Source: Pseudomonas fluorescens (lineage in GTDB: Bacteria > Pseudomonadota > Gammaproteobacteria > Pseudomonadales > Pseudomonadaceae). Taken from it: a stretch of DNA of 64,000 nucleotides. Shown in pieces: positions 1-64,000 of the stretch (positions are counted from its first letter, which is position 1; every line of letters begins with the position of its first letter). The DNA is taken from NCBI RefSeq assembly GCF_000968015.1, contig NZ_LACH01000021.1, forward strand, positions 4,777 to 68,776, in the 5' to 3' direction. Under the pieces are notes generated by a model that saw only the letters and a program-made list of their open reading frames with translations, was not told where the DNA came from and did no database searches. Made by a program: the position numbers and the translations under genes.

Positions 1-31
1 CAGGCTGCGCCAGCTGCTACACGGACGTGTC

Positions 32-1096
32 TTACCGACGAACCAACGTGGCCAATCCTTCCTCAGCCAGACGCCGGGTCAGTTCTGCTGTGGTCATTTC
101 AACGCCCAGCGTGAATGCCTGACCCGCCCAGAGATTGCTGAAATCAGCTTCCCCCTTGGCACGCAACGGCATCAGCGCACCACCCGCCAGCGGGAACGCT
201 GGTGCTTTGTCGCTCATCGGCCCGAGTTCGCGCATCACCCGATTGAGAATGCCGCGCGCCGGGCGTCCGGTGAAAATGTTAGTGACGGCCGTTTCACTTT
301 CCTTGGCCGTGCGCAACGCCTTGTGATGAGACGCGCTGACTTTCGCCTCTGGCGTGAACAAGTACGCCGTGCCCACTTGCACCGCCGAAGCCCCTAACAG
401 GAAAGCCGCCGCGACGCCTCGCGCATCGGCAATCCCGCCGGCAGCAATCACCGGCACTTTCACCGCATCGACGATCTGTGGCACCAGCGCAAAGAGGCCC
501 ACCTGGCTGCTCAGATCATCACTGAGAAACATGCCCCGATGGCCACCGGCCTCGTACCCCATGGCGATGATCGCGTCACAACCCTGCTGTTCGAGCCAGA
601 TGGCCTCTTCGACGGTGGTGGCTGAGGAAAGGATTTTCGCTCCAGTGGCTTTCACGCGATCCAGCAGGGACTTTTCCGGCAGACCGAAGTGGAAACTCAC
701 GACTTCGGGGCGAAACTCTTCGATCACTTCGCAAGCCGCACTATCGAACGGCGCTCGATTGGACACTGGCGTCGGCGTGTCGAAGTCCACGCCAAGTTCC
801 CGGTAGTAGGGTTCCAGCAGAGTCTTCCAGTCTCGAGCGCGCTGCTCATCGGCGGCGGGAGTCTGATGGCAGAAGTAGTTGACGTTAATCGGGCGCTGAG
901 TGTGTTGACGAATCGTTTTCAGCTCCTCGCGCAACTGATCGATGCTCAACATGGCTGCCGGCATCGAGCCCAGGCCGCCGGCATTACTGGCTGCGATAAC
1001 CATGGCCGAAGTGGTCGCACCGGCCATGGGCGCCTGGATGATCGGCAGCTCAATGCCAAGCAGGTCAAGAATGCGGGTGTCTGGCCATTTGCTCAT
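32..1096 (-). CDS. Nitronate monooxygenase (NMO/2-nitropropane dioxygenase family)
   Basis: FMN-dependent TIM-barrel enzyme of 354 aa expected to oxidise alkyl nitronates, such as propionate-3-nitronate, with O2 in the cytosol. Seen in the sequence: the N-terminal FMN-binding strand PIIQAPMAGATT (residues 19-29), the motif GYEAGGHRG (180-188) whose His186 matches the catalytic base of class I enzymes, and AAGGIAD (218-224) plus GASAVQVGTAYL (235-246), typical of the phosphate-binding end. The ATG at 1096 is preceded by GGAGAATCC, a usable ribosome binding site. The length is normal for the family. It is divergent from the reductase gene at 1286 with 189 bases between them, so it is probably monocistronic. 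The substrate is inferred from the family only. Confidence 0.88.
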   Translation of the reverse strand: MSKWPDTRILDLLGIELPIIQAPMAGATTSAMVIAASNAGGLGSMPAAMLSIDQLREELKTIRQHTQRPINVNYFCHQTPAADEQRARDWKTLLEPYYRELGVDFDTPTPVSNRAPFDSAACEVIEEFRPEVVSFHFGLPEKSLLDRVKATGAKILSSATTVEEAIWLEQQGCDAIIAMGYEAGGHRGMFLSDDLSSQVGLFALVPQIVDAVKVPVIAAGGIADARGVAAAFLLGASAVQVGTAYLFTPEAKVSASHHKALRTAKESETAVTNIFTGRPARGILNRVMRELGPMSDKAPAFPLAGGALMPLRAKGEADFSNLWAGQAFTLGVEMTTAELTRRLAEEGLATLVRR

Positions 1097-1285
1097 TTGA
1101 AGGATTCTCCGACGTCATAACAGGGCAGGGACGGTAGGACCGTTTTTGTATCAGCAATGACCGATGCAAGGCCAGTCGAGTTTTCATTCCGTGCGTCACT
1201 CTTGGCTTAAAGTCGAGTACGGTGAAATGTGGCTATGTGTTATTCCAACTGCACGACAACTGAGTGATTCCATCTGGAGGCAGCA

Positions 1286-2269
1286 ATGTTCCAAGGCATT
1301 TTGATCGACAAAGACGACAGCGGTTACCGGGCCACACTGCAAGAGATCAATGACGATCAACTGCCCGAGGGCGATGTGACAGTGCGTGTGGCGTACAGCA
1401 CGCTGAACTTCAAGGATGGCTTGGCGATCACCGGCAGCAGCCCGGTGGTGCGAAAATTCCCAATGGTGCCGGGGATCGATCTGGCAGGGACTGTCGAAGT
1501 CAGCGGGCATCCGGACTACAAGGTCGGTGATCAGGTTGTACTCAATGGCTGGGGAGTTGGCGAAGGGCATTGGGGCGGACTGGCGCAGAAGGCTCGCTTG
1601 AATGGCGACTGGTTGATTCCGCTACCCAAGGAGTTCACCGCGGCGCAAGCGATGGCCATCGGCACGGCGGGTTACACGGCGATGCTGAGCATCCTGGCGC
1701 TGGAACATAATGGTGTGACACCCGAGCAGGGCGACGTATTGGTCACCGGTGCCAATGGCGGTGTAGGCAGTTTCGCCATCGCACTGCTGAGCAAGCTCGG
1801 TTATCGGGTGGTCGCGTCCACCGGCCGCACCTCTGAACACGACTACCTCAAGCAACTAGGCGCCAGCGAAATCATCGACCGCGCCACGCTGTCCGAGCCG
1901 GGCAAACCCTTGGCCAAGGAGCGTTGGGCGGCGGTCATCGACTCGGTCGGCAGCCACACCCTGGCCAATGCCTGTGCCAGCACGAAGGCCAACGGCACTG
2001 TCGCCGCGTGTGGCCTTGCGCAAGGTATGGACTTCCCGGCTTCAGTCGCCCCGTTCATTTTGCGCGGCGTGACCCTGGCCGGGATCAACAGCGTGACTCA
2101 GCCAAAAGCCAAGCGGATACTGGCCTGGAATCGTCTGGCCAAGGATCTAGACTTTACCTTGTTGCCGCTGATCAGCCACGAAATCGGCTTGAGCGAAGTG
2201 ATCGAGGCTGCACCGCGATTGCTCGCCGGTCAATTGCGTGGGCGGGTGGTGGTCGACGTCAATCGTTGA
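1286..2269 (+). CDS. Acrylyl-CoA reductase-like MDR oxidoreductase (AcuI/YhdH family)
   Basis: Zinc-free medium-chain dehydrogenase/reductase of 327 aa, the family of E. coli YhdH/AcuI, which reduces acrylyl-CoA to propionyl-CoA with NADPH. The GroES-like half shows STLNFKDGLAITG and PMVPGIDLAGTV (about residues 38-75). The nucleotide-binding half shows VLVTGANGGVGSFAIALL (about 151-168), a GxGxxG-type dinucleotide fold. No structural-zinc cysteine cluster is present, as expected for YhdH. The ATG at 1286 has a strong TCTGGAGGCAGC Shine-Dalgarno. It is followed after 52 bases by the GyrI-like gene on the same strand. The acrylyl-CoA substrate is a family inference; a general quinone or enal reductase is the alternative. 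Confidence 0.85.
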   Translation: MFQGILIDKDDSGYRATLQEINDDQLPEGDVTVRVAYSTLNFKDGLAITGSSPVVRKFPMVPGIDLAGTVEVSGHPDYKVGDQVVLNGWGVGEGHWGGLAQKARLNGDWLIPLPKEFTAAQAMAIGTAGYTAMLSILALEHNGVTPEQGDVLVTGANGGVGSFAIALLSKLGYRVVASTGRTSEHDYLKQLGASEIIDRATLSEPGKPLAKERWAAVIDSVGSHTLANACASTKANGTVAACGLAQGMDFPASVAPFILRGVTLAGINSVTQPKAKRILAWNRLAKDLDFTLLPLISHEIGLSEVIEAAPRLLAGQLRGRVVVDVNR

Positions 2270-2321
2270 CTGTTTCACCCTAAATCAAACAGACCAATTA
2301 CAGAGACAAGGATTATCGACC

Positions 2322-2810
2322 ATGGATGTAAAGCAGCGTGAAGTGCGGCCCTTTAGCGTCTCGGGGCTGCAAGTGCGCACCTGCAATGCCGCAGAGCAGC
2401 AACCAGGCACGGCGCGCATCGGCCCTATGTGGGAACAATTCTACGTTGAGGGAATCTTCGACAAGATCGCTCACAAGCAGCCGGATACCTTTGTGTATGG
2501 CGTCTATTCCAACTACGAGTCCGACGCTTCAGGCCACTTCGATGTGACTGCGGGGGTGGCGGTCACCGCGCCCTCCGAGGACTTTGCGCAGGTTCAGGTG
2601 GAGGGAGGCGAATACCTGGTGTTCAGCGCCAAAGGGGCGATGCCAGACAGCGTCATTCAGACGTGGGGCCTGATCTGGGCCTACTTTAAGGACAACCCGC
2701 AGGTTTGCCGCACGTTCGCCACAGACTTCGAGGTCTATACCAGCCCGGATTCAGTGTCGGTCTATATCGGCATTCAGGACTCGGACGGGTTTTCGCGCTC
2801 AAGCAACTGA
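2322..2810 (+). CDS. GyrI-like / AraC effector-binding domain protein
   Basis: Single-domain protein of 162 aa made only of the GyrI-like small-molecule-binding fold found at the C-terminus of many AraC and MerR regulators, without a DNA-binding part. Typical features are the start KQREVRPFSVSGLQVRT, the WEQFY segment near residue 37, the YGVYSNYESDASGHFDVTAG stretch in the middle and the late VYTSPDSVSVYIGIQ strand. I chose the ATG at 2322, preceded by ACAAGGATTATCGACC, because the sequence upstream in frame belongs to the preceding reductase gene. Its 3' end overlaps the end of the convergent ada gene by 37 bases. It could bind a hydrophobic small molecule or be a standalone sensor; the ligand is unknown. 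Confidence 0.82.
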   Translation: MDVKQREVRPFSVSGLQVRTCNAAEQQPGTARIGPMWEQFYVEGIFDKIAHKQPDTFVYGVYSNYESDASGHFDVTAGVAVTAPSEDFAQVQVEGGEYLVFSAKGAMPDSVIQTWGLIWAYFKDNPQVCRTFATDFEVYTSPDSVSVYIGIQDSDGFSRSSN

Positions 2811-3847
2811 CGCTTGCGCTCCACGCCCCAGCGATAGCCTGAAAGGTTGCCGTCGCTGCGCACCACACGGTGGCACGGAATCGCCACCGCCAGGTTGTTC
2901 GCGCCGCAGGCTTGAGCCACGGCGCGCATCGCTTTTGGCGCGCCGATTCGTTGAGCGATATCGGCGTAGCTGGCGGTGCTGCCGACGGGAATCTCCCGCA
3001 GGGCTTGCCAGACCCGTTCTTGAAAAGCGGTGCCACGAACATCCAGCGGCAAGTCCAGGCCCAGGGCCGGCGCTTCGATAAAACCTACAACCTTGGCGAT
3101 CAGTTGCTCGAAACTGTGATCGGCACCAATCAAATTCGCACGCCGAAACTTGTCTTGCAGATCGCAGACCAATTGGTGCGGATCATCGCCCAGCAGGATC
3201 GCGCAAACACCCCGTTCACTCTGCGCCACGAGGATCGCCCCCAGGGAACACTGACCGACGGCAAAACGAATGTCGTTGTTCTGACCGGCCGCACGGTAAT
3301 CACCGGGTTTCATGCCCAATAACTGATCGGCGGCTTCATAAAAACGACTGTTGGAGTTGAAGCCGGCGTCATACAGCGCGTCGGTCACTAAGCCCCCGTC
3401 TGCGAGTCGCTCACGGACCCTGCGGGAGCGATGGGCCGCGGCGTAGCCCTTGGGCGTCAGACCGGTCACCGCTTTGAACACGCGATGGAAGTGAAAGCTA
3501 CTCAGGCCCGCAGCAGAAGCCAACTCGCTTAGAACAGGCAGATTCTCCGCGGTTTCGATCTGGCGGCATGCGGCCGCGACGGTCGCGGCATGTTGCGCGG
3601 CGACGTCGCTTTGATCTTTCGCGGCGCGTTTGCTGGGGCGATAACCCGCGGCTTGCGCCTGCTCGGCCGTGTCGAAGAACTCGACGTTCTGCGGTTTAGG
3701 CAAGCGCGCCAGGCTGCTGGGGCGGCAGTAAATGCCGGTGGTTTTCACCGCATACACAAACTGTCCGTCTGCCCGGGGATCACGCGCGACCACGGCGGCC
3801 CAGCGCGGATCGTTCTCGGTGGCGATCTTTGTCGAATGGCTTGTCAT
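2774..3847 (-). CDS. ada: Ada: methylated-DNA methyltransferase / AraC-type regulator
   Basis: Adaptive-response protein. From the ATG at 3847 it has 357 aa (E. coli Ada has 354); an in-frame ATG at 3874 would add nine residues. Three parts are visible: an N-terminal methylphosphotriester domain (1-80), an AraC helix-turn-helix region with SSFHFHRVFKAVTGLTPKGY (about 115-135), and a C-terminal O6-methylguanine methyltransferase with PCHRV and acceptor Cys325. The N-terminal acceptor Cys41 (GIYCRPS) is kept, but the other three zinc cysteines of E. coli Ada (C42, C69, C72) are Ser45, Ser72 and Ala75. Zinc binding, and so the classic methyl switch, may be altered. It is the last gene of the operon, 86 bases after alkB counted from this start. 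The symbol is secure from overall similarity; the sensor mechanism is not. Confidence 0.9.
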   Translation of the reverse strand: MTSHSTKIATENDPRWAAVVARDPRADGQFVYAVKTTGIYCRPSSLARLPKPQNVEFFDTAEQAQAAGYRPSKRAAKDQSDVAAQHAATVAAACRQIETAENLPVLSELASAAGLSSFHFHRVFKAVTGLTPKGYAAAHRSRRVRERLADGGLVTDALYDAGFNSNSRFYEAADQLLGMKPGDYRAAGQNNDIRFAVGQCSLGAILVAQSERGVCAILLGDDPHQLVCDLQDKFRRANLIGADHSFEQLIAKVVGFIEAPALGLDLPLDVRGTAFQERVWQALREIPVGSTASYADIAQRIGAPKAMRAVAQACGANNLAVAIPCHRVVRSDGNLSGYRWGVERKRQLLERENPSES

Positions 3848-3933
3848 GGCTTCATGTCCGTTGATCCGTTTCATGCAGATTAACCAGCCGACGGGGTCGC
3901 TGCACCCCGGGTCTTGCGGTCGAATTCGAAGGC

Positions 3934-4599
3934 TTACCCGGCGGTACGAAAAGTGAAGTTGATCCGTTGTTCGCCCAGTCGCGGGTGTTGGCCATCCTTG
4001 ATCGGCAAGACCCCGTGATAACGCAAGCGATCCACACCACCCCAGACCACAATGTCGCCATGCAACAGCGGCACCCGTTGGCTTTTATCGCTGCGTTCGA
4101 AGCCGCCGAACAGGAACATCGCCGGCAATCCCAGGGACACTGAAACAATGGGCGCTGCGTAGGAAGTTTCGTCTTTGTCCTGGTGCAATGACATCTTGGC
4201 TCCGGGAACATAGCGGTTGATCAGGCAGGAATCAGGCACGAAATCCGCGAACCCTGCTTCCCGTGCCGCCGCTTGTGCCAGTTCAAAAAACACCTCGGGC
4301 ATTTTCGGCCAGGGTTTTCCGCTCAGCGGATCATGGCGGGTATAGCGATAACCGCTGCGGTCGGTGGTCCAGCCCAGCGCGCCGCAACTGCTCAAGGCCA
4401 CCGACATGGTAAAGCCCCCGGGCGTGATCATCTGCCGAAGCGGTGCCGCCGCCAGAACGGCCTCCAGTGCGGGCAGCAACTGATCCAGCCAGGGCAGGGC
4501 AAAGCCTCTGAGGACGCAGGACTGTTCGCCGATCCGATCGAGCCTGGGTTGCTGCTGGGGTTCGGCGTCGGCAAACAAGTCGAAGGTGATCGGGTTCAT
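3934..4599 (-). CDS. alkB: AlkB: 2OG-Fe(II) DNA dealkylase
   Basis: DNA repair dioxygenase of 221 aa that removes 1-methyladenine and 3-methylcytosine by oxidation, using Fe(II), 2-oxoglutarate and O2. All landmarks of E. coli AlkB are present: the start ITFDLFADAEP, the lid GGFTMSVALSSCGALGW (61-77), the iron ligands His139 and Asp141 in SLHQDKDE, distal His195 in RLRYHG, and the 2OG-binding arginines Arg212 and Arg218 in QRINFTFR. I chose the ATG at 4599 because E. coli AlkB starts at the same place, and because it lies four bases after the TGA of the upstream oxygenase gene. An earlier in-frame start would overlap that gene. It is translated within the repair operon. Confidence 0.95.
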   Translation of the reverse strand: MNPITFDLFADAEPQQQPRLDRIGEQSCVLRGFALPWLDQLLPALEAVLAAAPLRQMITPGGFTMSVALSSCGALGWTTDRSGYRYTRHDPLSGKPWPKMPEVFFELAQAAAREAGFADFVPDSCLINRYVPGAKMSLHQDKDETSYAAPIVSVSLGLPAMFLFGGFERSDKSQRVPLLHGDIVVWGGVDRLRYHGVLPIKDGQHPRLGEQRINFTFRTAG

Positions 4600-4603
4600 G
4601 GGG

Positions 4604-5308
4604 TCATAACGCGTCGTGAAAGATGATTCCAAGGGTATGCCGTTTTCCACTGTGCAGGCGACTCACGCCGTGGCGCAGGGTGACTCGGTAATAGCCACGA
4701 ACGCCTTTGACCGGTCGTTGGTTGACGGCAAAGATCAGCGCGTCACCTTTCTTCAGGCCAATGACCTGGGGACGCGACTGCATTCGAGGGCGCTGTTCCG
4801 TCAGCACGAACTCGCCACCGGTGAAATCGTCGTCGGGCTCTGACAGCAGAATCGCCACTTGCAGCGGGAAGACGTGTTCGCCGTACAGGTCCTGATGCAA
4901 GCAGTTGTAGTCCTGCGGTCCATATTGCAGCAACAACGGCGTCGGGCGTTCCTGACCGGCGGCATGGCAGCGTTCGAGGAACGCTTCATGGGTTTCCGGG
5001 AAACGGGTCGGCAGGTCCATGTGCTCGTACCAGCGATTGGCTATTGGCACCAGTCTCGGGTAAAGCGCACTGCGCAAACGGGCGACGATATCCGGCAACG
5101 GGTACCGGAAGTATTTGTACTCGCCACGGCCAAAGCCGTGACGAGCCATGATCACTTGCGAGCGAAATGGTTCGGCATTGGCATACAGAGCGCTGATGTC
5201 ATCGCACGTCTCGTGGCTTAACAGCGACCGGATGATCGCGCAGCCATCCTGATCGAGTTGCTGTTCCAGCGCTTCCCAGTCCAGTCCGTCGAGAGAACGC
5301 TCGCTCAT
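4604..5308 (-). CDS. 2OG-Fe(II) oxygenase (PF09859-like, predicted DNA repair)
   Basis: Dioxygenase of 234 aa distinct from AlkB. The iron-binding pair is His138-x-Asp140 in NCLHQDLYGEHVFPLQVAIL, and the distal histidine lies in RHGVSRLHSGKRHTLGIIF (His213 is the likely ligand). This ending resembles, from memory, the Pfam family PF09859 (Oxygenase-NA), predicted to act on damaged nucleic acid. Its start ATGA overlaps the stop of the ogt gene by four bases, and alkB begins four bases after its own stop, so the three genes are translationally coupled. That context strongly suggests a role in alkylation damage. No biochemical function is known to me; an amino-acid or protein hydroxylase is the alternative. 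Confidence 0.85.
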   Translation of the reverse strand: MSERSLDGLDWEALEQQLDQDGCAIIRSLLSHETCDDISALYANAEPFRSQVIMARHGFGRGEYKYFRYPLPDIVARLRSALYPRLVPIANRWYEHMDLPTRFPETHEAFLERCHAAGQERPTPLLLQYGPQDYNCLHQDLYGEHVFPLQVAILLSEPDDDFTGGEFVLTEQRPRMQSRPQVIGLKKGDALIFAVNQRPVKGVRGYYRVTLRHGVSRLHSGKRHTLGIIFHDAL

Positions 5309-56380: not shown

Positions 56381-57307
56381 ATGGACCGTTTTAACGCCAT
56401 GCGCGTATTCACTCGAATCGTCGAATTGGGCGGCTTTGCCAAGGCGGCGGATAGCCTGCAATTGCCCCGGGCCTCAGTGACCATTCTGATCAAGCAACTG
56501 GAGGCGCATCTCGGTGTGCAACTGCTGCAACGCACGACGCGGCAGATCAGCCTGACGCTCGACGGCGCGGCCTATTACCCTCGTTGCGTGCGGTTGCTGG
56601 CGGACCTGGAGGAAACCGAAGCGGTGTTCAGCGCTGCACGCAACAACCCCAAGGGACTGTTGCGCGTGGACATGCCAGCGGGCGTAGGACGCTTGATGGT
56701 GATCCCGGCATTGCCGCAATTTACTGCCCGGTATCCCTTGATCGAGCTGGAAATCGGCTTGAATGACCGGCCTGTCGACCTGATACGCGAAGGCGTCGAT
56801 TGCGTGCTGCGGGGCGGCGACGCACTGGACGATTCTCTGGTGGCGCGGCCGCTGGCCATGCTGGACCAGGTCACGTGTGCCAGCCCCGACTACTTGAAGC
56901 GATTCGGAACGCCTCAGTGCCTGGCTGACCTTGGAGGCCATCAGATGGTGGAGTACTTCTCCAGCAGCAACGGCAAGCGGTATGGGCTGGAGTTCATGGT
57001 CAATGATCAGGTTCAGGTCATTAATCTACCCAAGCAAGTCTCGGTCAACAGTGCCGATGGTTATCTGGCCGCTTGTGAGGCGGGGTATGGTTTGGTCCAG
57101 ACTCCGTACTACCACGTAGCCCGCCAGCTGAGCGAAGGCCGTTTGTGCGAAGTTCTCAGGACGGTGCCGACACCGGGGATGCCGCTGACGGCGCTCTACC
57201 CGCCACACCGCCAGTTGTCCCGGCGGGTGAGGGTGTTTGTCGACTGGCTGGTGGAGCTTTGCGCGCAGCCGGGCAATGACTTTTATCGAAAAGACTCACG
57301 CGCCTGA
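56381..57307 (+). CDS. LysR-family transcriptional regulator
   Basis: Regulator of 308 aa. The helix-turn-helix covers about 1-60 with MRVFTRIVELGGFAKAADSL and PRASVTILIKQLEAHLGVQL. The effector domain (90-300) begins LLRVDMPAGVGRLMVIPALP. It looks like the AaeR/YafC branch that controls neighbouring oxidoreductases, and is divergent from the aldo/keto reductase gene. Its last 152 bases are overlapped on the other strand by the end of the GNAT-protein gene, so one of the two 3' ends may have changed by recombination. Confidence 0.92.
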   Translation: MDRFNAMRVFTRIVELGGFAKAADSLQLPRASVTILIKQLEAHLGVQLLQRTTRQISLTLDGAAYYPRCVRLLADLEETEAVFSAARNNPKGLLRVDMPAGVGRLMVIPALPQFTARYPLIELEIGLNDRPVDLIREGVDCVLRGGDALDDSLVARPLAMLDQVTCASPDYLKRFGTPQCLADLGGHQMVEYFSSSNGKRYGLEFMVNDQVQVINLPKQVSVNSADGYLAACEAGYGLVQTPYYHVARQLSEGRLCEVLRTVPTPGMPLTALYPPHRQLSRRVRVFVDWLVELCAQPGNDFYRKDSRA

Positions 57308-58241
57308 GCGGGCGTTGTTCGCCGCTACTGTGCATGTTGGCGATTTGCTGTAAGTCATCATGCAGTTGTTGCATGCGCGGGCAGTGCAGGTTGAGGTGCC
57401 GAGCCAGTACCCCTCGATGAAACAGGGCGAACCACCCTTTACTGCCAGGTGCAGGCATCAGCCCGGTAAAGGTGAAGCCAAGGGCCGCCAAATTGCGAAA
57501 GTCCTGGGCAAAGAGCAGTGACATCTGAAGTCTGGCCGAGATCAGCCAGTGCCGGGGCAATTGACCGATCTGGTCAAGCAGACGTTTGGTCAAACGCTGA
57601 ATGACCATGTCGAATCTTTTATGGTGTTGCTTGAGTTGCAAGGGCAGAGAAGACAACGGCGTCGTGTCCGGATGAGTCCCGAACACGGAACACAAGTGCT
57701 GCATAAACCCCCGGCAGCTGTCAGGCCATGGGATGTCGGGGAGCGGTCGCGTATGTCCTTCGACAACGTAACACCCCATTACGATGGTTTCCGGCAGTGG
57801 CTCAGCGAAGGGCGAAGGGACGTAGTCAGGAAGCAAACCCGTGCTGTGGAAGCCGATGTTGGCTGCCATGCGTTGCGTGTAAGGATGGTGGGTTACTTGT
57901 TTGATCGAAACGCCCTTGAATCCCAGAGAATGTGACCGCGACAGTAACTCCCGGCCCAGACGGGTCGCGATATTCTGGCCCTGCGCGGCGGGATGCACCA
58001 CGCTCAGGGCGAGTTCTGTAGTGTCCGAAAGAGTGTCATGGCACAGCGCTGCATGGCCCAGAACGCGTATGCCGTCCACCGCCAGCATCGACTTCCAGCG
58101 CCTCTCGGCATTGTGCTGATTGATCATATTCGGCAAGTAAACATCCGGCTGAACGTAATGATCGCCATAGACCTCGCGAAACAACTGGCTCACGGCACGT
58201 GCGTCGGATGGCCGATAGGGTCGAAAAATCAAATGTGGCAT
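57156..58241 (-). CDS. GNAT-like N-acetyltransferase in the luxCE-type cluster
   Basis: Protein of 361 aa. The first part (about 1-160) looks like a GNAT domain: FRPYRPSDARAVSQLFREVY, the acetyl-CoA-binding ALSVVHPAAQGQNIATRLGR (about 79-98) and KGVSIKQVTHHPYTQRMAAN. The middle (about 200-320) is unrecognised. The last 50 residues (SSGEQRPLRRVSLFDKSH, then a stretch rich in A, P, S and G) are antisense to the end of lysR and look like read-through rather than evolved protein. The ATG at 58241 overlaps the stop of the adenylation-enzyme gene by one base (TGATG) and has CCGGAGACTGCG upstream, so it is coupled to that cluster. Confidence 0.8.
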   Translation of the reverse strand: MPHLIFRPYRPSDARAVSQLFREVYGDHYVQPDVYLPNMINQHNAERRWKSMLAVDGIRVLGHAALCHDTLSDTTELALSVVHPAAQGQNIATRLGRELLSRSHSLGFKGVSIKQVTHHPYTQRMAANIGFHSTGLLPDYVPSPFAEPLPETIVMGCYVVEGHTRPLPDIPWPDSCRGFMQHLCSVFGTHPDTTPLSSLPLQLKQHHKRFDMVIQRLTKRLLDQIGQLPRHWLISARLQMSLLFAQDFRNLAALGFTFTGLMPAPGSKGWFALFHRGVLARHLNLHCPRMQQLHDDLQQIANMHSSGEQRPLRRVSLFDKSHCPAARKAPPASRQTPSPAGTTGGVAGRAPSAASPVSAPS

Positions 58242-59530
58242 CACGCAGTCTCCGGCGACGGTGCGTCATAAATGCGCAAGTCCAGGACCCGCAGTTGTTT
58301 GCCGGAACGTGGGTGCAGCTTTAGTGCTGCGACATCGCAGGACAGCACTCGCAACTCCAACAGACCCTCGCGGCTCAGTTCCTCGATGGCGGGATAGTGT
58401 TCAACCAGCGCCTCGTACAACGCTCGGCACACCGGTACGGTGGCCATTGATAGCGCTGAGGGAACCCACTTCACACACAAAATATCCTTGTATCCGTCAT
58501 GTTCGATCAGCAATTGCCATTGGTCGTTGTGGGCAATGCGTTGGACGATCTGCTGGATGTCATCGATCAGCAGCGACAGCACCCCGACTCGCACGCGCTG
58601 GCTGTGTGCGCTACGTCCCTTGAGGGCGAATTTGCGCTTCGGGGTTGAGCCGGGTTCGCGCCAGCACGCGCGGTCGCCCACCGGATAACGCAGCAGTGGC
58701 ATGAGCCGGCGAGTCAGATTGGTCACCACCAACAATCCGGTACGATCGCATTCTTCGATGACTTCGCCGGTGAGCTCATCGACGATCTCCAGCACGGTGT
58801 GTGGTTCAAACACCCGATGCTCGCCCAAGGCGCAGTCGCGCCCGCTGGCCCCGATAAGGCCGGCGTCTACACTGGCGTAGCCAATGGAAGCAATGCGCAC
58901 GTTAGGAAACACGTCGGTGAGGATTGCCAACTGCGGGGCAAACAGGCTTTCGCCGCCGTACAACAACGTTTCAACCCCGCACAATACTCGCCGATGCTGG
59001 TTAAGGTAGGCCGCGAATCGCAGCAGCTGTGCCGGTACGCCGACCAGCACGTTGATCCGGTGCTGATCAATCGCATTGGCCAGGACATCCAGCTCGACGT
59101 GTCCGGTAAACGGAAATTCGCAAATGGATCGCCTGACATGTGCCAGGGCGTCGTGGATGAACAGAAAACTGGCGTAGAGATCACCGGAAAAAAACAGATT
59201 GGCGACACGGTCGCCGTCGTTCAACTGAGAGGAGAAACTTTCTCCAAACGTACTGACCAGTACTTGCCATTCGCTATAGGTGTACACCGTCAGTTTGCCC
59301 TGGCTGGTCGATCCGCCGGTTTTAAACGCCAGCGCATCGTCGATCTTTCCGGTCAGGACCGGCCAATGACTCAAATCATGGCTGTCAGCCCAATAGTCTG
59401 CCGCATTGGTCAGCGGTAGATCTTTTAGTGTAATACCGTGCGGCGGTAAGTGTTCCAGTTGCTGGCGGTAGAAATTTGAATGTTGTCGTATATAAGGCAG
59501 CAGTTGTTCGAGCGAATAAGTTGATTTCAC
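58241..59530 (-). CDS. PaaK-like adenylate-forming enzyme
   Basis: ANL-superfamily enzyme of 429 aa, related to phenylacetate-CoA ligase. The phosphate loop is AFKTGGSTSQGKLTVYTY (about 68-85), then DRVANLFFSGDLYASFLFIH, the A5-like IASIGYASVDAGLIG (about 218-232) and the A7-like LRYPVGDRACWRE. It shares these motifs with the C-terminal half of the neighbouring 800-aa fusion protein, so the two are paralogues. It starts with GTG at 59530, six bases after AGAGAG. Its substrate is not known; by family it activates a carboxylic acid as an acyl or aryl adenylate and passes it to CoA or a protein thiol. Confidence 0.85.
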   Translation of the reverse strand: MKSTYSLEQLLPYIRQHSNFYRQQLEHLPPHGITLKDLPLTNAADYWADSHDLSHWPVLTGKIDDALAFKTGGSTSQGKLTVYTYSEWQVLVSTFGESFSSQLNDGDRVANLFFSGDLYASFLFIHDALAHVRRSICEFPFTGHVELDVLANAIDQHRINVLVGVPAQLLRFAAYLNQHRRVLCGVETLLYGGESLFAPQLAILTDVFPNVRIASIGYASVDAGLIGASGRDCALGEHRVFEPHTVLEIVDELTGEVIEECDRTGLLVVTNLTRRLMPLLRYPVGDRACWREPGSTPKRKFALKGRSAHSQRVRVGVLSLLIDDIQQIVQRIAHNDQWQLLIEHDGYKDILCVKWVPSALSMATVPVCRALYEALVEHYPAIEELSREGLLELRVLSCDVAALKLHPRSGKQLRVLDLRIYDAPSPETA

Positions 59531-59595: not shown

Positions 59596-61998
59596 TTATT
59601 TTCTTTTATCAATAACCAACGGTGTTTTGCCGCTGTGTTTGTTTCGAGTGAACGTTTGCTCCGTGCACACTTGAACTTCGACAGTTAACAGTTTGGCGTT
59701 TACGGCATTGGCCAGCGCTTCATGGTTCAGCAATGCGTTATGAAGCTGATCAGCGTCTGCATCCGTTAGAACTGTCAGCCGCTCGACGCCATCAGGGGCG
59801 TAGTCGAGAACAATCTGAATGGGTGCGCCGACACTATCCTGCAGAGCCGAAGGCGAAATGAACTCCGTGCCCATTCGCACCAGTTTGCCGTGGCGCTGGA
59901 GCAGTTCGAATCGGGGAGAGTCCAGACCGCACGGGCAGGCTCCAGGTATCCAGCGACCGGTGTCGCCCACATCATATCGGCGCACGGTCTGGCCTTGCCG
60001 TGCTCGTGAAGTAAACAACAGGCGCCCGATCTCATTGGCCTGAACCGGTTCATCCCGTTCGCTCTGCACAATTTCCAGATGCTGGGTATCGCACATCAAG
60101 TGAAACACCCCGTTCGCGGTGGCTGCGCACGCATGCCCCAAGGGACCGGCGTCGACGGAGCCATAAATCGCCGAGCGGATCATCGAGACCCCGCAGCTTT
60201 CCATGAGGCTCAGGCTGGTTTGGCCCGGATGCTCGCCGCCGAGGAACACTTTGCCTATACCTGCGTACGCGCGGAGTCGGGCCTGCTCGTTGAAGAACAG
60301 ACGATGCAAGGTACTCGGCATGCCAATCAGCACGGTGACTCGCTGGTCGACGATCAGTTGGGCGATTTCGCAGAAGTCATCGTCCTGGGGCGCACCCATG
60401 GGGAAATGTGTGACGCCCATCTGTTCCAGTATCTTGGTAAAACTGAGGAACCCTCCGTACAGGCTGCCGCCGTAAAACAGGTTCATGACCCGGTCCTGTG
60501 AAGGATCGAGCCCGGCGGCGAACAGGCCGTCGGCCGCTGCGCGCATCTGCCGTTGAAAGTCGCGATAGCTGAAGCCGGCGAGGGCCGGAGTGCCGCTGCT
60601 CCCTCCTGAGCGAAAATACAATTGCGCCGCGACGCCCATCGGCTGGGTCGTGAAGGTGTTTTTGTCCATGATCGGCGCATGGGCGGTGTCGGGGGCGGGC
60701 GGGACCAGGTCGAGCGTTGCACGGCCCGTCAGCACCTCAGGTGCCAGACTCACCGAGAGGCGGCGACTCAGACGCGTCAACGCGTATACGCCATCATGGG
60801 GCTCACCGGCGTAGCCGTCATGAATCCCCGCGCAAGGCGCAATACGGGTGACCCCAGCGTTGACCAGCGTTCGCACAAGGCCTGGCGTTTCTGCCGGAGA
60901 GCAAATCAGCGCGCAGCTTTGCAGGACGGTGCGCCAGGGCAACAGCGTCTCGGCGATCAAGTGTTGCGGCACGGGTTTGAGCAGCACTGTACGAAACAGC
61001 GGCGAAGGCGCGAGCGTCTGATGGTGTTCCCAGATGATCCGCCATCCGTCGCCGGCCCAGACCTGGCCGCTCTGGTTCGCAAAACAGTAATCCAGTTGCG
61101 CCATGGCCGTGCGGGTGGTGATCTCGCACGCTTCCTGGTCCGTGGGCACCAACGCCGGCCAGTGCGACGCACGACGCGTGAAGGCTTCGCTCAAACGCTT
61201 GCCGAGGTCCTGCAGGATGGCTGGATCGTTGCTGTCCACCAGCACCCATTGCGGACTGGAACACGCTTGCTGATCCAGACTGCAAACCTCATCCACCAAC
61301 GCATCCAGCGCCGAAGCGTTGGCCGCGTCAGGCGACAGATAAGCGAAACTGATCCTATGCCCCCAATCGATCCAGCGACATCCGGTGGGGATCTGCTGAC
61401 GAATCGCCTTGAGCGCCTTTTCACCGCCCCAGGCTGACACGCCATCGGCCTGAGCGCAGAGTTCGGCTATCCGGGAAGTGCCCACGGGCAGCACAGCGAC
61501 GAATTCGGCAAGCCTGCCACGGGTGTCGCACTTCACGAAGGCAGCCAGCAATTGCGCAGTCAAACCCGCATCGCTGGCGCTGGGGCGTAACCAGTTAATG
61601 TTACCGGCCAGCAGGCTTTCGAGAACCGCGCAGAACGCCAGCATCGGCGCATTGCCCGGCGTCACATGCACCACCAGCCCCAGGGGGTGCCAGCTTTCAA
61701 AGTGTGGCTGCCGGTAGTCGATACGTCTCAGCGAACGGGGTTGCGAACCCAGTTCCCGCTCAAGCTTCGTACTCAGGTTGCTGCGCTGGCAGAACTCGAT
61801 CAGCCCCTGACATTGATCGTCGTCCAGAGGCAGGTTCAGGCTGCGAGTCTGTAGTTGCGTGGCGAAACGAGCCGCGGTTTCGATGACGGTCTCGCTGTCG
61901 ATCGGTGCAGAAAGCAATCCGGGCATTTGTTTTCGAAGGCTGTCGAGGGCGCTTTCCGGGGTGACATCGTCACGCAGCTGGCCATTGATGAGGTACAT
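59596..61998 (-). CDS. LuxC-type acyl-CoA reductase fused to a PaaK-like adenylation domain
   Basis: Fusion of 800 aa. Residues 1-430 are a LuxC (PF05893-type) fatty-acyl reductase: VVHVTPGNAPMLAFCAVLES (109-128), the nucleotide-binding GVSAWGGEKALKAIR (about 186-200) and the catalytic Cys246 in LDQQACSSPQ. Residues 445-800 are an ANL domain with the phosphate loop YFRSGGSSGTP (461-471), RSAIYGSVDAGPLGHAC, VRRYDVGDTGRW and a final Lys-rich NKHSGKTPLVIDKRK. The fusion could activate an acid and reduce it to an aldehyde in one chain. The ATG at 61998 is one base after the stop of the LuxE-like gene and has GGAGGGGCTTGAT upstream. No frameshift is seen at the junction. Confidence 0.88.
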   Translation of the reverse strand: MYLINGQLRDDVTPESALDSLRKQMPGLLSAPIDSETVIETAARFATQLQTRSLNLPLDDDQCQGLIEFCQRSNLSTKLERELGSQPRSLRRIDYRQPHFESWHPLGLVVHVTPGNAPMLAFCAVLESLLAGNINWLRPSASDAGLTAQLLAAFVKCDTRGRLAEFVAVLPVGTSRIAELCAQADGVSAWGGEKALKAIRQQIPTGCRWIDWGHRISFAYLSPDAANASALDALVDEVCSLDQQACSSPQWVLVDSNDPAILQDLGKRLSEAFTRRASHWPALVPTDQEACEITTRTAMAQLDYCFANQSGQVWAGDGWRIIWEHHQTLAPSPLFRTVLLKPVPQHLIAETLLPWRTVLQSCALICSPAETPGLVRTLVNAGVTRIAPCAGIHDGYAGEPHDGVYALTRLSRRLSVSLAPEVLTGRATLDLVPPAPDTAHAPIMDKNTFTTQPMGVAAQLYFRSGGSSGTPALAGFSYRDFQRQMRAAADGLFAAGLDPSQDRVMNLFYGGSLYGGFLSFTKILEQMGVTHFPMGAPQDDDFCEIAQLIVDQRVTVLIGMPSTLHRLFFNEQARLRAYAGIGKVFLGGEHPGQTSLSLMESCGVSMIRSAIYGSVDAGPLGHACAATANGVFHLMCDTQHLEIVQSERDEPVQANEIGRLLFTSRARQGQTVRRYDVGDTGRWIPGACPCGLDSPRFELLQRHGKLVRMGTEFISPSALQDSVGAPIQIVLDYAPDGVERLTVLTDADADQLHNALLNHEALANAVNAKLLTVEVQVCTEQTFTRNKHSGKTPLVIDKRK

Positions 61999-61999
61999 A

Positions 62000-63130
62000 T
62001 CAAGCCCCTCCCAGCAATTCGGAAGCCGCCATGGCGCAGCTGCGGCTAGCGGTGGTGCCAGCGCGTCCGTGCAGCTCGAACCAATCGGTCGTCAGGCCGC
62101 ATCCACAATGTGCGCCGGGGTGTAATGTCGCGAGATCGCCCATGACCACCGCGTGAGCAGGGCTTGACGAAATGTATGGGGAGACGAATTCCAGCAAGCC
62201 GCGCTGGCCGTATGGCTGGATCGTGAAATCGGATGGGTTGCGCACGAAAACCTTCGAGTAAATGGGGACATGAAAATGATGGCGGGCACATTGGATATAG
62301 GGCACGGCATGCTCGACGGCACCGTAACCATCCCGGCAGCGGGACAGGTCGACACCCAATTGCCGATTGATTCGGGCATACAACTCAAGCAGGGGAATCT
62401 CTCGTGCTGCCTGGGTTTTCCAGCCACCCCCCAAAAACACCAGTGACTGAGCGGGCAACTTGAGATTCGGTGCGCAGGTGTTTTCCATGTGGTGTAGCGC
62501 ATGGGAAAGAAACGCAGGAAATCCGAGAATCCGCACAGGCAATCCCTCGTCGGCAAACTCCTGCAAGGCGCGAATCACGCCAAACAGGTCGAACTCGTGA
62601 CCTTCACCCGTCCGGCGCAATCCGTAGACGACCCGATTGACGGGCGCATAGCTGCAGAGAAACTGGTCGGTGTAAGTGGTGCCCAAGGTGATGGCCGCCT
62701 CGGGCTCGTAGCTCAGGAGCAAGTAGTTGCAGGGGCTGTCCGGCGTATCCCAGCCGTAGTGCCGGAAAACGTGGCTCACCATGCCTTGAGCCGCAGCCAT
62801 GCTGCGAGGGTCATAGCGCATGCGACTTTTCTGGCCGCTGGTGCCAGACGATGTCAGCTCCAGCGCGCCTTCGCCGGTGGGGCCGAACAACACGTGACGT
62901 TTGAAATAGTTGGCGAAAATCGGTGGCAACCTGGACCAGTCATCCAGTGTCTCCAGGTCCTTTGCCTCTAGCCCGTTGGCGTTTAGCCAGCGTTCGTAGC
63001 CAGGCGTGTGGTGACAATGAAACAGGCTGATTTCCCCCATCGCCTGGTCAAACAGACCCTCGGGTACGGAATCCAGGCAATAGGGTTGCGCTAACGCGCA
63101 GAGCGCATCGGTGTGGGGTAAATGGATCAT
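62000..63130 (-). CDS. LuxE-like acyl-protein synthetase
   Basis: Protein of 376 aa of the LuxE (PF04443-type) family. In bioluminescent bacteria LuxE activates a fatty acid with ATP and holds it on a C-terminal cysteine before LuxC reduces it. The ATP loop is LELTSSGTSGQKSRMRYD (about 90-107). The C-terminal FELHGRAGTTASRSCAMAAS carries Cys365, matching in place the acceptor Cys364 of Photobacterium LuxE. I prefer the ATG at 63130 over a TTG three bases earlier; AGTAGGTC lies upstream. It is downstream of the MFS exporter gene by 21 bases and directly upstream of the LuxC fusion. No luxAB genes are seen. Confidence 0.88.
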   Translation of the reverse strand: MIHLPHTDALCALAQPYCLDSVPEGLFDQAMGEISLFHCHHTPGYERWLNANGLEAKDLETLDDWSRLPPIFANYFKRHVLFGPTGEGALELTSSGTSGQKSRMRYDPRSMAAAQGMVSHVFRHYGWDTPDSPCNYLLLSYEPEAAITLGTTYTDQFLCSYAPVNRVVYGLRRTGEGHEFDLFGVIRALQEFADEGLPVRILGFPAFLSHALHHMENTCAPNLKLPAQSLVFLGGGWKTQAAREIPLLELYARINRQLGVDLSRCRDGYGAVEHAVPYIQCARHHFHVPIYSKVFVRNPSDFTIQPYGQRGLLEFVSPYISSSPAHAVVMGDLATLHPGAHCGCGLTTDWFELHGRAGTTASRSCAMAASELLGGA

Positions 63131-63151
63131 CAATAGACCTACTGTGTGGTG

Positions 63152-64000
63152 TCAGACGGCAAGCGCGATGTGAGAGCGCCGCAGAAACAGGCTTAGGGGT
63201 GCCAGGCACAGAAGCCCCGCGATACCCGCCATCCAAGCGAACGATTCGTGGCTGTCACCGGCACCGGCGGCCGCAATAAGCGAGCCGCCACCGCCCATGA
63301 CGGCGATCGAGATCATGCCGATCATGGCCGAGACCAGACCTTTGCTGTCGTCGCTGGCGAACAGCGCAAGCCGGTACAGCGCGGCATTGCTCATGCCCAG
63401 CCCCACGGCGTAGAGCGTCAGGCAACTGATCAGCACGACTGTCGAAGCACCGTAGAAGCTGACGGTGACTAGCGCGATGACCCCGCCGCAAAACGGCCAC
63501 AGGGCGTATCGGATCAGTGATGGCAGTTCAATGTTGGCAATCAGTCGGTTGAGGATCAGATTGCCGAGAATGACTGCCGCAAACACCGGGATTTGCCACA
63601 GGCCATAGTGCAGGGTTGAAAGCCCCTGGTTGTGGATCAGCAAGAGCGGCGCCAACCCGATCCAGGCAATCAAGGGCAGGCTCATCACGCCCAGTGCGAC
63701 TGCGGCGCAAAGGAATTGCGGGTTAGTCAGCAACGCGGCATAGCGGCGCACAGTGCCGTGCCATTCAAAGCGCACGGCTTCCAGTCGCTGACCGTCGTGG
63801 CGCAGGGTGCCCACGGTTTCCGGCATGCACAGGTAAAGCCCGAGCCAGATGATCACGCCGCTGATACCCAGCAGTAAAAACAGTTCCCGCCAGGACAACC
63901 ACTCCAGCAGCAGACTGCCGAGCAACGGCCCCAGAAGCGGGGAGAGCAGCGCAACGTTCCCCAACAACGCCATGATTTTGACCGCGTCGGCTTCGCAGAA
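63152..64000 (-). CDS. MdfA-like MFS exporter, incomplete at the window edge
   Basis: C-terminal 282 residues of a major facilitator; the start lies beyond the window. It resembles E. coli MdfA from about TM4 onwards: ALLGNVALLSPLLGPLLGSL, LSWRELFLLLGISGVI, ALGVMSLPLIAWIGLAPLLL and GMSNAALYRLALFASDDSKG. MdfA exports lipophilic cations and neutral drugs using protons. Its stop is 21 bases from the start of the LuxE-like gene, so it is the first visible gene of the minus-strand cluster and may export the product of that cluster or give self-protection. The substrate is unknown. Confidence 0.88.
   Translation of the reverse strand, partial: FCEADAVKIMALLGNVALLSPLLGPLLGSLLLEWLSWRELFLLLGISGVIIWLGLYLCMPETVGTLRHDGQRLEAVRFEWHGTVRRYAALLTNPQFLCAAVALGVMSLPLIAWIGLAPLLLIHNQGLSTLHYGLWQIPVFAAVILGNLILNRLIANIELPSLIRYALWPFCGGVIALVTVSFYGASTVVLISCLTLYAVGLGMSNAALYRLALFASDDSKGLVSAMIGMISIAVMGGGGSLIAAAGAGDSHESFAWMAGIAGLLCLAPLSLFLRRSHIALAV

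What the first reader, a model, noticed from the sequence alone, without database searches (positions are those of the whole stretch)
59596..61998. LuxC reductase and PaaK-like adenylation domain in one 800-aa chain
LuxC normally works with separate LuxE and LuxD. Here the reductase half (catalytic Cys246) is joined in frame to a complete adenylation domain (loop YFRSGGSSGTP at 461-471), while a separate LuxE-like protein is also present. A one-chain carboxylic acid reductase built from LuxC would be an unusual design, differing from classic CAR enzymes (adenylation-PCP-reductase).
Basis: partly seen in the sequence, partly recalled or inferred. Interest (0 to 1): 0.7.

Follow-up and report, generated by a model that had tools for sequence, protein, structure and literature searches.

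The report
Leupeptin-type enzyme LeupB in Pseudomonas
The unusual two-part protein is real, but it is the Pseudomonas version of an enzyme from a known gene set that makes leupeptin-like protease inhibitors (small peptides ending in an aldehyde), and probably not a new stand-alone acid-reducing enzyme.

Summary
In detail: 59596-61998(-) encodes one 800-aa chain with a LuxC reductase half (Cys246 conserved) and a PaaK-like adenylation half. It is no assembly artefact: 72 of 398 sampled genomes of the genus carry it full length, as do Xenorhabdus, Photorhabdus, Chromobacterium, Salmonella-plasmid and Streptomyces loci. It belongs to a conserved cassette: (MFS)-LuxE-[LuxC::PaaK]-PaaK-GNAT. So the chain is LeupB of a leupABCD-type leupeptin operon (Li et al. 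2020, not readable here). Leupeptin needs three carboxylate activations, one reduction and one acetylation; the operon encodes three adenylating units, one reductase, one GNAT. LuxE keeps its likely acyl-carrying Cys (88 of 89, one gap), so LuxE most likely feeds the LuxC half while the fused PaaK half makes a peptide bond. The 'one-chain carboxylic acid reductase' is less likely but not excluded. The Pseudomonas product is untested.

The parts
59596..61998 (-). LeupB: LuxC::PaaK fusion, 800 aa
   Evidence: conserved cassette in 95 loci
60760..61815 (-). LuxC (acyl-CoA/acyl-protein reductase) domain, residues 62-413; fold match to LuxC of 7xc6 spans residues 1-414
   Evidence: PF05893 E 4.8e-110; VIA-align Z 21.8, 381 aligned, but rmsd 18.7
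61261..61263 (-). codon of Cys246, the expected acyl-accepting Cys of the reductase half
   Evidence: C in 92 of 92 aligned LeupB sequences; aligned with the Cys of 7xc6 LuxC
59599..60741 (-). PaaK-like adenylation domain, residues 420-800
   Evidence: VIA-align to 4r1m_A, Z 28.7, 357 aligned, rmsd 4.2; NCBIfam hits
60586..60618 (-). P-loop YFRSGGSSGTP, residues 461-471
   Evidence: S464, G465, G466, S467 in 92 of 92; G469 in 91 of 92
62000..63133 (-). LeupA: LuxE-like acyl-protein synthetase, 377 aa from TTG (an ATG follows at once, at 63130)
   Evidence: PF04443 E 4.1e-19; 7xc6_E E 9.8e-13; start codons
62036..62038 (-). codon of Cys366 of LeupA, aligned with Cys364 of Photobacterium LuxE
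   Evidence: alignment; C in 88 of 89, the other a gap
58241..59530 (-). LeupC: stand-alone PaaK-like ligase, 429 aa
   Evidence: 52% identical to its counterpart in L144
57156..58244 (-). LeupD: GNAT N-acetyltransferase, overlaps the end of leupC by 4 nt; residues ~314-362 are an unusual tail
   Evidence: PF00583; GNAT fold, best rows Z 14-15; tail pLDDT <50; 8-nt gap against relatives
63152..64000 (-). MdfA/Bcr-like MFS exporter, cut by the window end (full gene L112:3929-5191, 420 aa)

Best explanation
The chain is LeupB, the second enzyme of a leupABCD-type operon that makes a leupeptin-like N-acyl peptide aldehyde without an NRPS. Proposed route: LeupD (GNAT) acetylates the first amino acid. 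The two PaaK-like units (the C-terminal half of LeupB, and LeupC) activate the acyl or peptidyl acids as AMP esters and join them to the next amine, making the two amide bonds. LeupA (LuxE-like) activates the C-terminal carboxylate, takes it onto Cys366 and passes it to Cys246 of the LuxC half of LeupB, where NAD(P)H reduces the thioester to the aldehyde. The MFS protein exports the product. Shown here: gene identity, conservation, key residues, and identity of the cassette with published leupABCD. From print (seen only as passages in citing papers): leup operons make leupeptin through AMP-dependent ligases and a reductase. Inferred: which adenylating unit does which step, and that the Pseudomonas product is leupeptin or a close analogue.
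For: Primers leupA_f and leupB_r (PMC8283571) match locus L144 with 0 mismatches and give 1,235 bp, the published size; leupA_f lies in the LuxE gene and leupB_r in the fusion gene (about codon 47). LuxE start to GNAT stop is 5,828-5,837 bp there (published 5,831), with an MFS gene adjacent as published. L144 is 63/55/52/38% identical to window LuxE/fusion/PaaK/GNAT. In 95 loci tblastn finds LuxE in 95, second PaaK in 95, GNAT in 90, MFS in 74 (several misses are stretches cut short). Cys246 in 92/92; LuxE Cys366 in 88/89 with one gap; S464, D679, R696 and K791 of the adenylation half in 92/92. 7xc6 is a solved LuxC-LuxE complex. PMC11212599 passage: leupeptin comes from separate AMP-dependent ligases plus a reductase in X. 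bovienii. Part count fits the chemistry (recalled): three adenylating units for two amide bonds plus one reduction, one reductase, one acetyltransferase.
Against: Li et al. 2020 could not be read, so its own assignment of each Leup enzyme is unknown to me. No Pseudomonas product was seen in the capped paper listings. LeupD is only 38% identical to its counterpart and the window copy has an unusual tail. The LuxC part of the model fits 7xc6 with rmsd 18.7, and both active-site loops have pLDDT <50, so domain contacts cannot be judged. LeupB adenylation domains as one clade have weak support (69/27). In Streptomyces the gene order differs and the window GNAT finds no match at 1e-8.
Confidence: 0.8

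Rival explanations
1. One-chain carboxylic acid reductase: the PaaK half activates an acid and hands it to Cys246 of the LuxC half in the same chain; LuxE and the second PaaK do other steps.
For: Both halves keep the residues expected for catalysis. GriC (AMP-binding) and GriD (reductase) of grixazone biosynthesis act as a carboxylic acid reductase, so an adenylating protein plus a reductase can suffice (PMC10179220 passage).
Against: A LuxE-like protein with the Cys expected to feed LuxC is in 95 of 95 cassette loci and would be surplus for the reduction; leupeptin needs two ligases besides the activation for reduction.
Confidence: 0.12
2. Same enzymatic logic, different product (not exclusive with the best explanation): the Pseudomonas cassette makes another N-acyl peptide aldehyde (other amino acids or acyl group) or its pyrazinone.
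For: LeupB and LeupC are only 55% and 52%, and LeupD 38%, identical to L144. Leup products are reported to vary: a lysine analogue in K. oxytoca, a homoarginine form from Xenorhabdus/Photorhabdus (PMC11480411 passages).
Against: Adenylation-core residues and cassette make-up are strongly conserved; no specificity code could be read.
Confidence: 0.3
3. Assembly or annotation artefact: two neighbouring genes joined by error.
For: None. Two of 74 genus members with a strong match have the gene in two pieces (G280, G293), which looks like local damage.
Against: Full-length uninterrupted match in 72 of 398 genomes of the genus, in named assemblies of six other genera (Xenorhabdus, Photorhabdus, Chromobacterium, Rugamonas, Burkholderia, Parachitinimonas), and in Salmonella and Streptomycetaceae plasmid records.
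Confidence: 0.01

Closest known systems
leupABCD leupeptin operon (Li et al. 2020, Angew. Chem. 59:17872, not read; described in passages of PMC8283571, PMC11480411, PMC11212599)
   Same: Same genes in the same order with an adjacent transporter; published primers, amplicon size and operon length fit homologue L144. LeupB there is the same LuxC::PaaK fusion, 55% identical.
   Different: The host here is Pseudomonas; ligases and GNAT are divergent; no homologue of the window MFS gene was found in 10 Xenorhabdus and 1 Photorhabdus loci. Product not shown.
LuxC-LuxE fatty acid reductase (PDB 7xc6, Photobacterium phosphoreum)
   Same: LuxC Cys and LuxE Cys364 both aligned and kept.
   Different: No LuxD, LuxA or LuxB among the six window proteins scanned; LuxC carries a fused PaaK-like domain; the likely substrate is a peptide acid, not a fatty acid (inference).
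GriC/GriD carboxylic acid reductase of grixazone biosynthesis
   Same: AMP-binding protein plus a reductase giving an aldehyde (PMC10179220 passage; that they resemble PaaK and LuxC is recalled).
   Different: Two separate chains, aromatic acid substrate; sequences not compared here.
PaaK-like AMP ligases NatL2 (6siw/6tm4), ClxA (9s3l/9s45), AjiA1 (6wuq)
   Same: Same fold as the C-terminal half (Z 23-24, 264-278 aligned).
   Different: Solved as chains of about 400-440 residues, without a reductase part; their reactions are recalled, not tested.
Classic CAR (A-PCP-R) and NRPS-made peptide aldehydes
   Same: Adenylation followed by reductive release (recalled).
   Different: Here no carrier domain was found, and the reductase is of LuxC/ALDH type.

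Membership tests
leupABCD leupeptin operon | Four-gene cluster leupA-D with adjacent transporter | tested here: met
   Window order MFS-LuxE-LuxC::PaaK-PaaK-GNAT; same order in L144, where the leupA/leupB primers match exactly
leupABCD leupeptin operon | Homology of each gene to the published operon | tested here: met
   63/55/52/38% identity to L144; the published strain CAV1374 itself was not fetched; L144 is tied to it by primers, amplicon and length
leupABCD leupeptin operon | Production of leupeptin | not testable with these tools
   Needs mass spectrometry of a deletion mutant
LuxC reductase (PF05893) | Domain over gathering score and catalytic Cys | tested here: met
   368.6 bits against cut-off 21; Cys246 92/92
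LuxC reductase, light-making type (NF052251) | Equivalog cut-off of 750 bits | tested here: not met
   63.1 bits
LuxE acyl-protein synthetase (window gene 62000-63133) | PF04443 over cut-off and Cys near the C-terminus | tested here: met
   69.1 bits against 24.9; Cys366 aligned with Cys364 of 7xc6_E
Phenylacetate-CoA ligase PaaK proper (TIGR02155) | Equivalog cut-off of 646.3 bits | tested here: not met
   46.1 bits: PaaK-like, not PaaK
Classic CAR | Carrier (PCP) domain between adenylation and reductase domains | tested here: not met
   No carrier domain in Pfam at E 0.01; order is reductase then adenylation
Carboxylic acid reductase in the enzymatic sense | ATP- and NAD(P)H-dependent reduction of an acid by this chain alone | not testable with these tools
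   Needs purified protein

The most novel reading that the evidence does not exclude
Carrier-protein-free thiotemplate assembly: the C-terminal amino acid is first loaded on LuxE Cys366, the PaaK half of LeupB (held next to LuxC by the fusion) and LeupC then build the peptide on this protein-bound thioester, and the finished chain moves to LuxC Cys246 for reductive release. LuxE would act as the 'carrier' and the fusion would organise ligation and release on one scaffold.
Probability: 0.12. Interest if true: 0.6.

Novelty: new member of a known kind. Interest (0 to 1): 0.33.

Why it matters
It puts a leupeptin-type protease-inhibitor operon in about a fifth of the sampled genomes of this Pseudomonas genus (72 full length of 398), many of them soil or plant species (recalled), where a secreted protease inhibitor could matter for hosts, predators or competitors. 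It also gives a function to a gene annotated, in the records seen, only as 'acyl-CoA reductase' or 'AMP-binding protein', and a testable division of labour for making peptide aldehydes without an NRPS.

Tried and rejected
Assembly error: rejected. Supply of a fatty aldehyde for light: not favoured; no LuxD- or LuxAB-like protein among the six window proteins scanned, and the LuxC and LuxE equivalog models are far under cut-off. LuxE-LuxC clusters of another kind: L113 and L114 show a LuxE::LuxC fusion beside a 387-aa gene (not searched) and a 522-aa gene, a different arrangement. The other four 822-833-aa frames of that genus were not opened.

My first guess that leupA was the GNAT gene (from the primer's first letters) was wrong: the primer lies in the LuxE gene. 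Among 29 loci scanned for the primers (17 Enterobacterales-side, 12 of L071-L082) the best match of either primer had 6-8 mismatches. In the genus search 2 of 20 genomes carry the fusion: one with 0 and 0 mismatches, the other with 4 and 2, both giving 1,235 bp.

My ORF caller lost LuxE in 6 loci and the fusion in 1, and took the fusion for the second PaaK in 2 and the reverse in 1; tblastn gave the counts used. Rows not in the LeupB residue counts: 3 of 95 (L070 not called, L122 and L138 too short). Of 15 family hits, 9 were used in the 95. One of three outgroup stretches (L148) gave no protein for the tree. No sigma-70-like promoter in L112 5000-6000. No E. coli genome matched by megablast, which would miss a 60%-identical copy. 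A search of the own genome for PaaK proper gave only this cassette and part of a large NRPS-sized frame, all under cut-off.

I do not claim that the Pseudomonas operon is absent from print: the listings I saw in searches named none, but several listings were capped and Li et al. 2020 is not held.

Full report
What is there. The ORF at 59596-61998(-) is 800 aa, ATG to stop, without interruption. Residues 62-413 match Pfam LuxC (E 4.8e-110) and 462-799 match PaaK-type models; phmmer against the PDB gives LuxC of 7xc6 for the first half and PaaK-type ligases for the second. An AlphaFold2 model (mean pLDDT 82.8, pTM 0.77, 31 sequences) shows two parts: 1-414 with an aldehyde-dehydrogenase/LuxC fold (7xc6_A, Z 21.8, 381 aligned, rmsd 18.7) and 420-800 with a PaaK fold (4r1m_A, Z 28.7, 357 aligned, rmsd 4.2). 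The large rmsd for the first half, and pLDDT under 50 at 244-248 and 463-471, mean that active sites and domain contacts are not reliable.

It is no artefact. Of 398 genomes sampled in the genus, 72 have the chain full length without stops and two have it in two pieces; 99 others have only weak matches (173 in all at E <= 0.001, counted by hand). That the genus is Pseudomonas is inferred from the 92-94% identical named loci. That scan of named genomes found 126 relatives and kept 80, matching from residue 1-21 to 796-800, in Pseudomonas, Xenorhabdus, Photorhabdus, Chromobacterium, Rugamonas, Burkholderia, Parachitinimonas and an Enterobacterales MAG. Six of 42 matching plasmid records have it over 80% or more of the length: two Salmonella (51%) and four Streptomycetaceae (38-42%).

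The surroundings are constant. Upstream on the same strand: a LuxE-like protein (62000-63133, 1 nt before the fusion) and an MdfA/Bcr-like MFS gene (63152 to beyond the window end; complete in L112). Downstream: a second PaaK-like protein (58241-59530) and a GNAT protein (57156-58244) overlapping it by 4 nt. In 95 loci (80, the own locus, 3 plasmid records, 2 genomes of the genus, 9 of 15 family hits) tblastn finds LuxE in 95, the second PaaK in 95, the GNAT in 90 and the MFS in 74. The five GNAT misses are three stretches cut short and two Streptomycetaceae records (in one of which a GNAT gene is annotated). The 21 MFS misses are 10 Xenorhabdus, 1 Photorhabdus, 2 Streptomycetaceae (in one an MFS gene is annotated) and 8 stretches of about 5 kb, so the counts are lower bounds. 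In Streptomyces sp. NBC_00158 the five annotated genes are in another order.

What it is. The part list suggested leupeptin, Ac-Leu-Leu-argininal (recalled). A 2024 paper states that leupeptin comes from a non-NRPS pathway with separate AMP-dependent ligases for the amide bonds and a reductase for the aldehyde in X. bovienii (PMC11212599, passage, citing Li et al. 2020). PMC8283571 (passages) gives leupABCD of strain CAV1374 as 315353-321183, an adjacent transporter, and primers leupA_f and leupB_r with a 1,235-bp product. In L144 both primers match with 0 mismatches and give 6078+20-4863 = 1,235 bp. leupA_f lies in the LuxE gene, leupB_r in the fusion gene (about codon 47). LuxE start to GNAT stop is 5,828 or 5,837 bp depending on the start codon chosen (published 5,831), and an MFS gene is adjacent. 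So leupA to leupD correspond to LuxE, LuxC::PaaK, PaaK and GNAT. Identities to the window proteins are 63, 55, 52 and 38%.

How it most likely works. Two amide bonds and one reduction need three carboxylate activations; the operon has three adenylating units (LuxE, the LeupB C-half, LeupC), one reductase and one acetyltransferase. LuxE Cys366 aligns with Cys364 of Photobacterium LuxE (its role as acyl carrier is recalled) and is C in 88 of 89 aligned sequences, with one gap (L033). LeupB Cys246 is C in 92 of 92; S464, G465, G466, S467, D679, R696 and K791 of the adenylation half are kept in 92 of 92 (3 of 95 rows not in the alignment). Since LuxE works with LuxC (7xc6 is such a complex; the chemistry is recalled), I assign LuxE to the reduction and the two PaaK-like units to amide bonds. 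This assignment is inference. A tree of 15 LeupB adenylation domains, 16 LeupC and 2 outgroup ligases puts LeupC in one clade (100/99) and the LeupB domains on one side of a weak branch (69/27); the tool warns of long branches. LeupD folds as a GNAT (residues ~3-168, best rows Z 14-15); the rest of it is barely tested by the listed rows.

Against the one-chain reductase. The fusion did not appear without LuxE in any of the 95 loci. I give it 12%.

Rarity of the fusion. In 398 genomes across the phylum, LuxC at E <= 1e-30 occurs in 18, with 19 matches. Eight sit in frames over 800 aa: two are this LuxC::PaaK type (the window, and G687, which matches the Xenorhabdus griffiniae VH1 contig of L073 in length), and six belong to one distant genus, of which the two opened are LuxE::LuxC fusions.

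Novelty. The chain is a new member of a known kind. What I can add is its wide presence in Pseudomonas and an explicit proposed role for the fused half. The original paper was not readable, so it may already list Pseudomonas and may assign the domains.

Noticed in passing
window 57156-58244: The window's leupD has an 8-nt gap near its 3' end compared with four close relatives (L003, L004, L006, L007), so the frame runs past their stop into the neighbouring LysR gene (56381-57307, + strand); natural or a sequencing slip.
   Followed up: partly
L113, L114 (unnamed genus g101, other class): A LuxE::LuxC fusion of 820 aa next to a 387-aa gene and a 522-aa gene: a different one-chain LuxE/LuxC design that might deserve its own look.
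   Followed up: no
L138 (G927): Decayed-looking cassette: LeupB ends at 481 aa and LeupC is reduced to 160 aa, as if the two adenylation regions had been deleted together.
   Followed up: no
L121 (Salmonella enterica plasmid CP054717.1): The four leup-type genes lie on a plasmid typed as conjugative (IncFIB, IncFII) with recombinase genes on either side and a 121-aa piece of the MFS gene.
   Followed up: partly
L112:6523-8910 (+): A 795-aa gene that looks like a penicillin-acylase-type protein (judged by eye, no domain search) stands upstream of the operon; a gene of similar length and orientation is seen in many Pseudomonas loci (not counted).
   Followed up: no
L123:12989-14356: In Streptomyces sp. 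NBC_00158 three genes annotated as peptidase inhibitor family I36 lie on the other strand just beyond the leup-type cassette.
   Followed up: no
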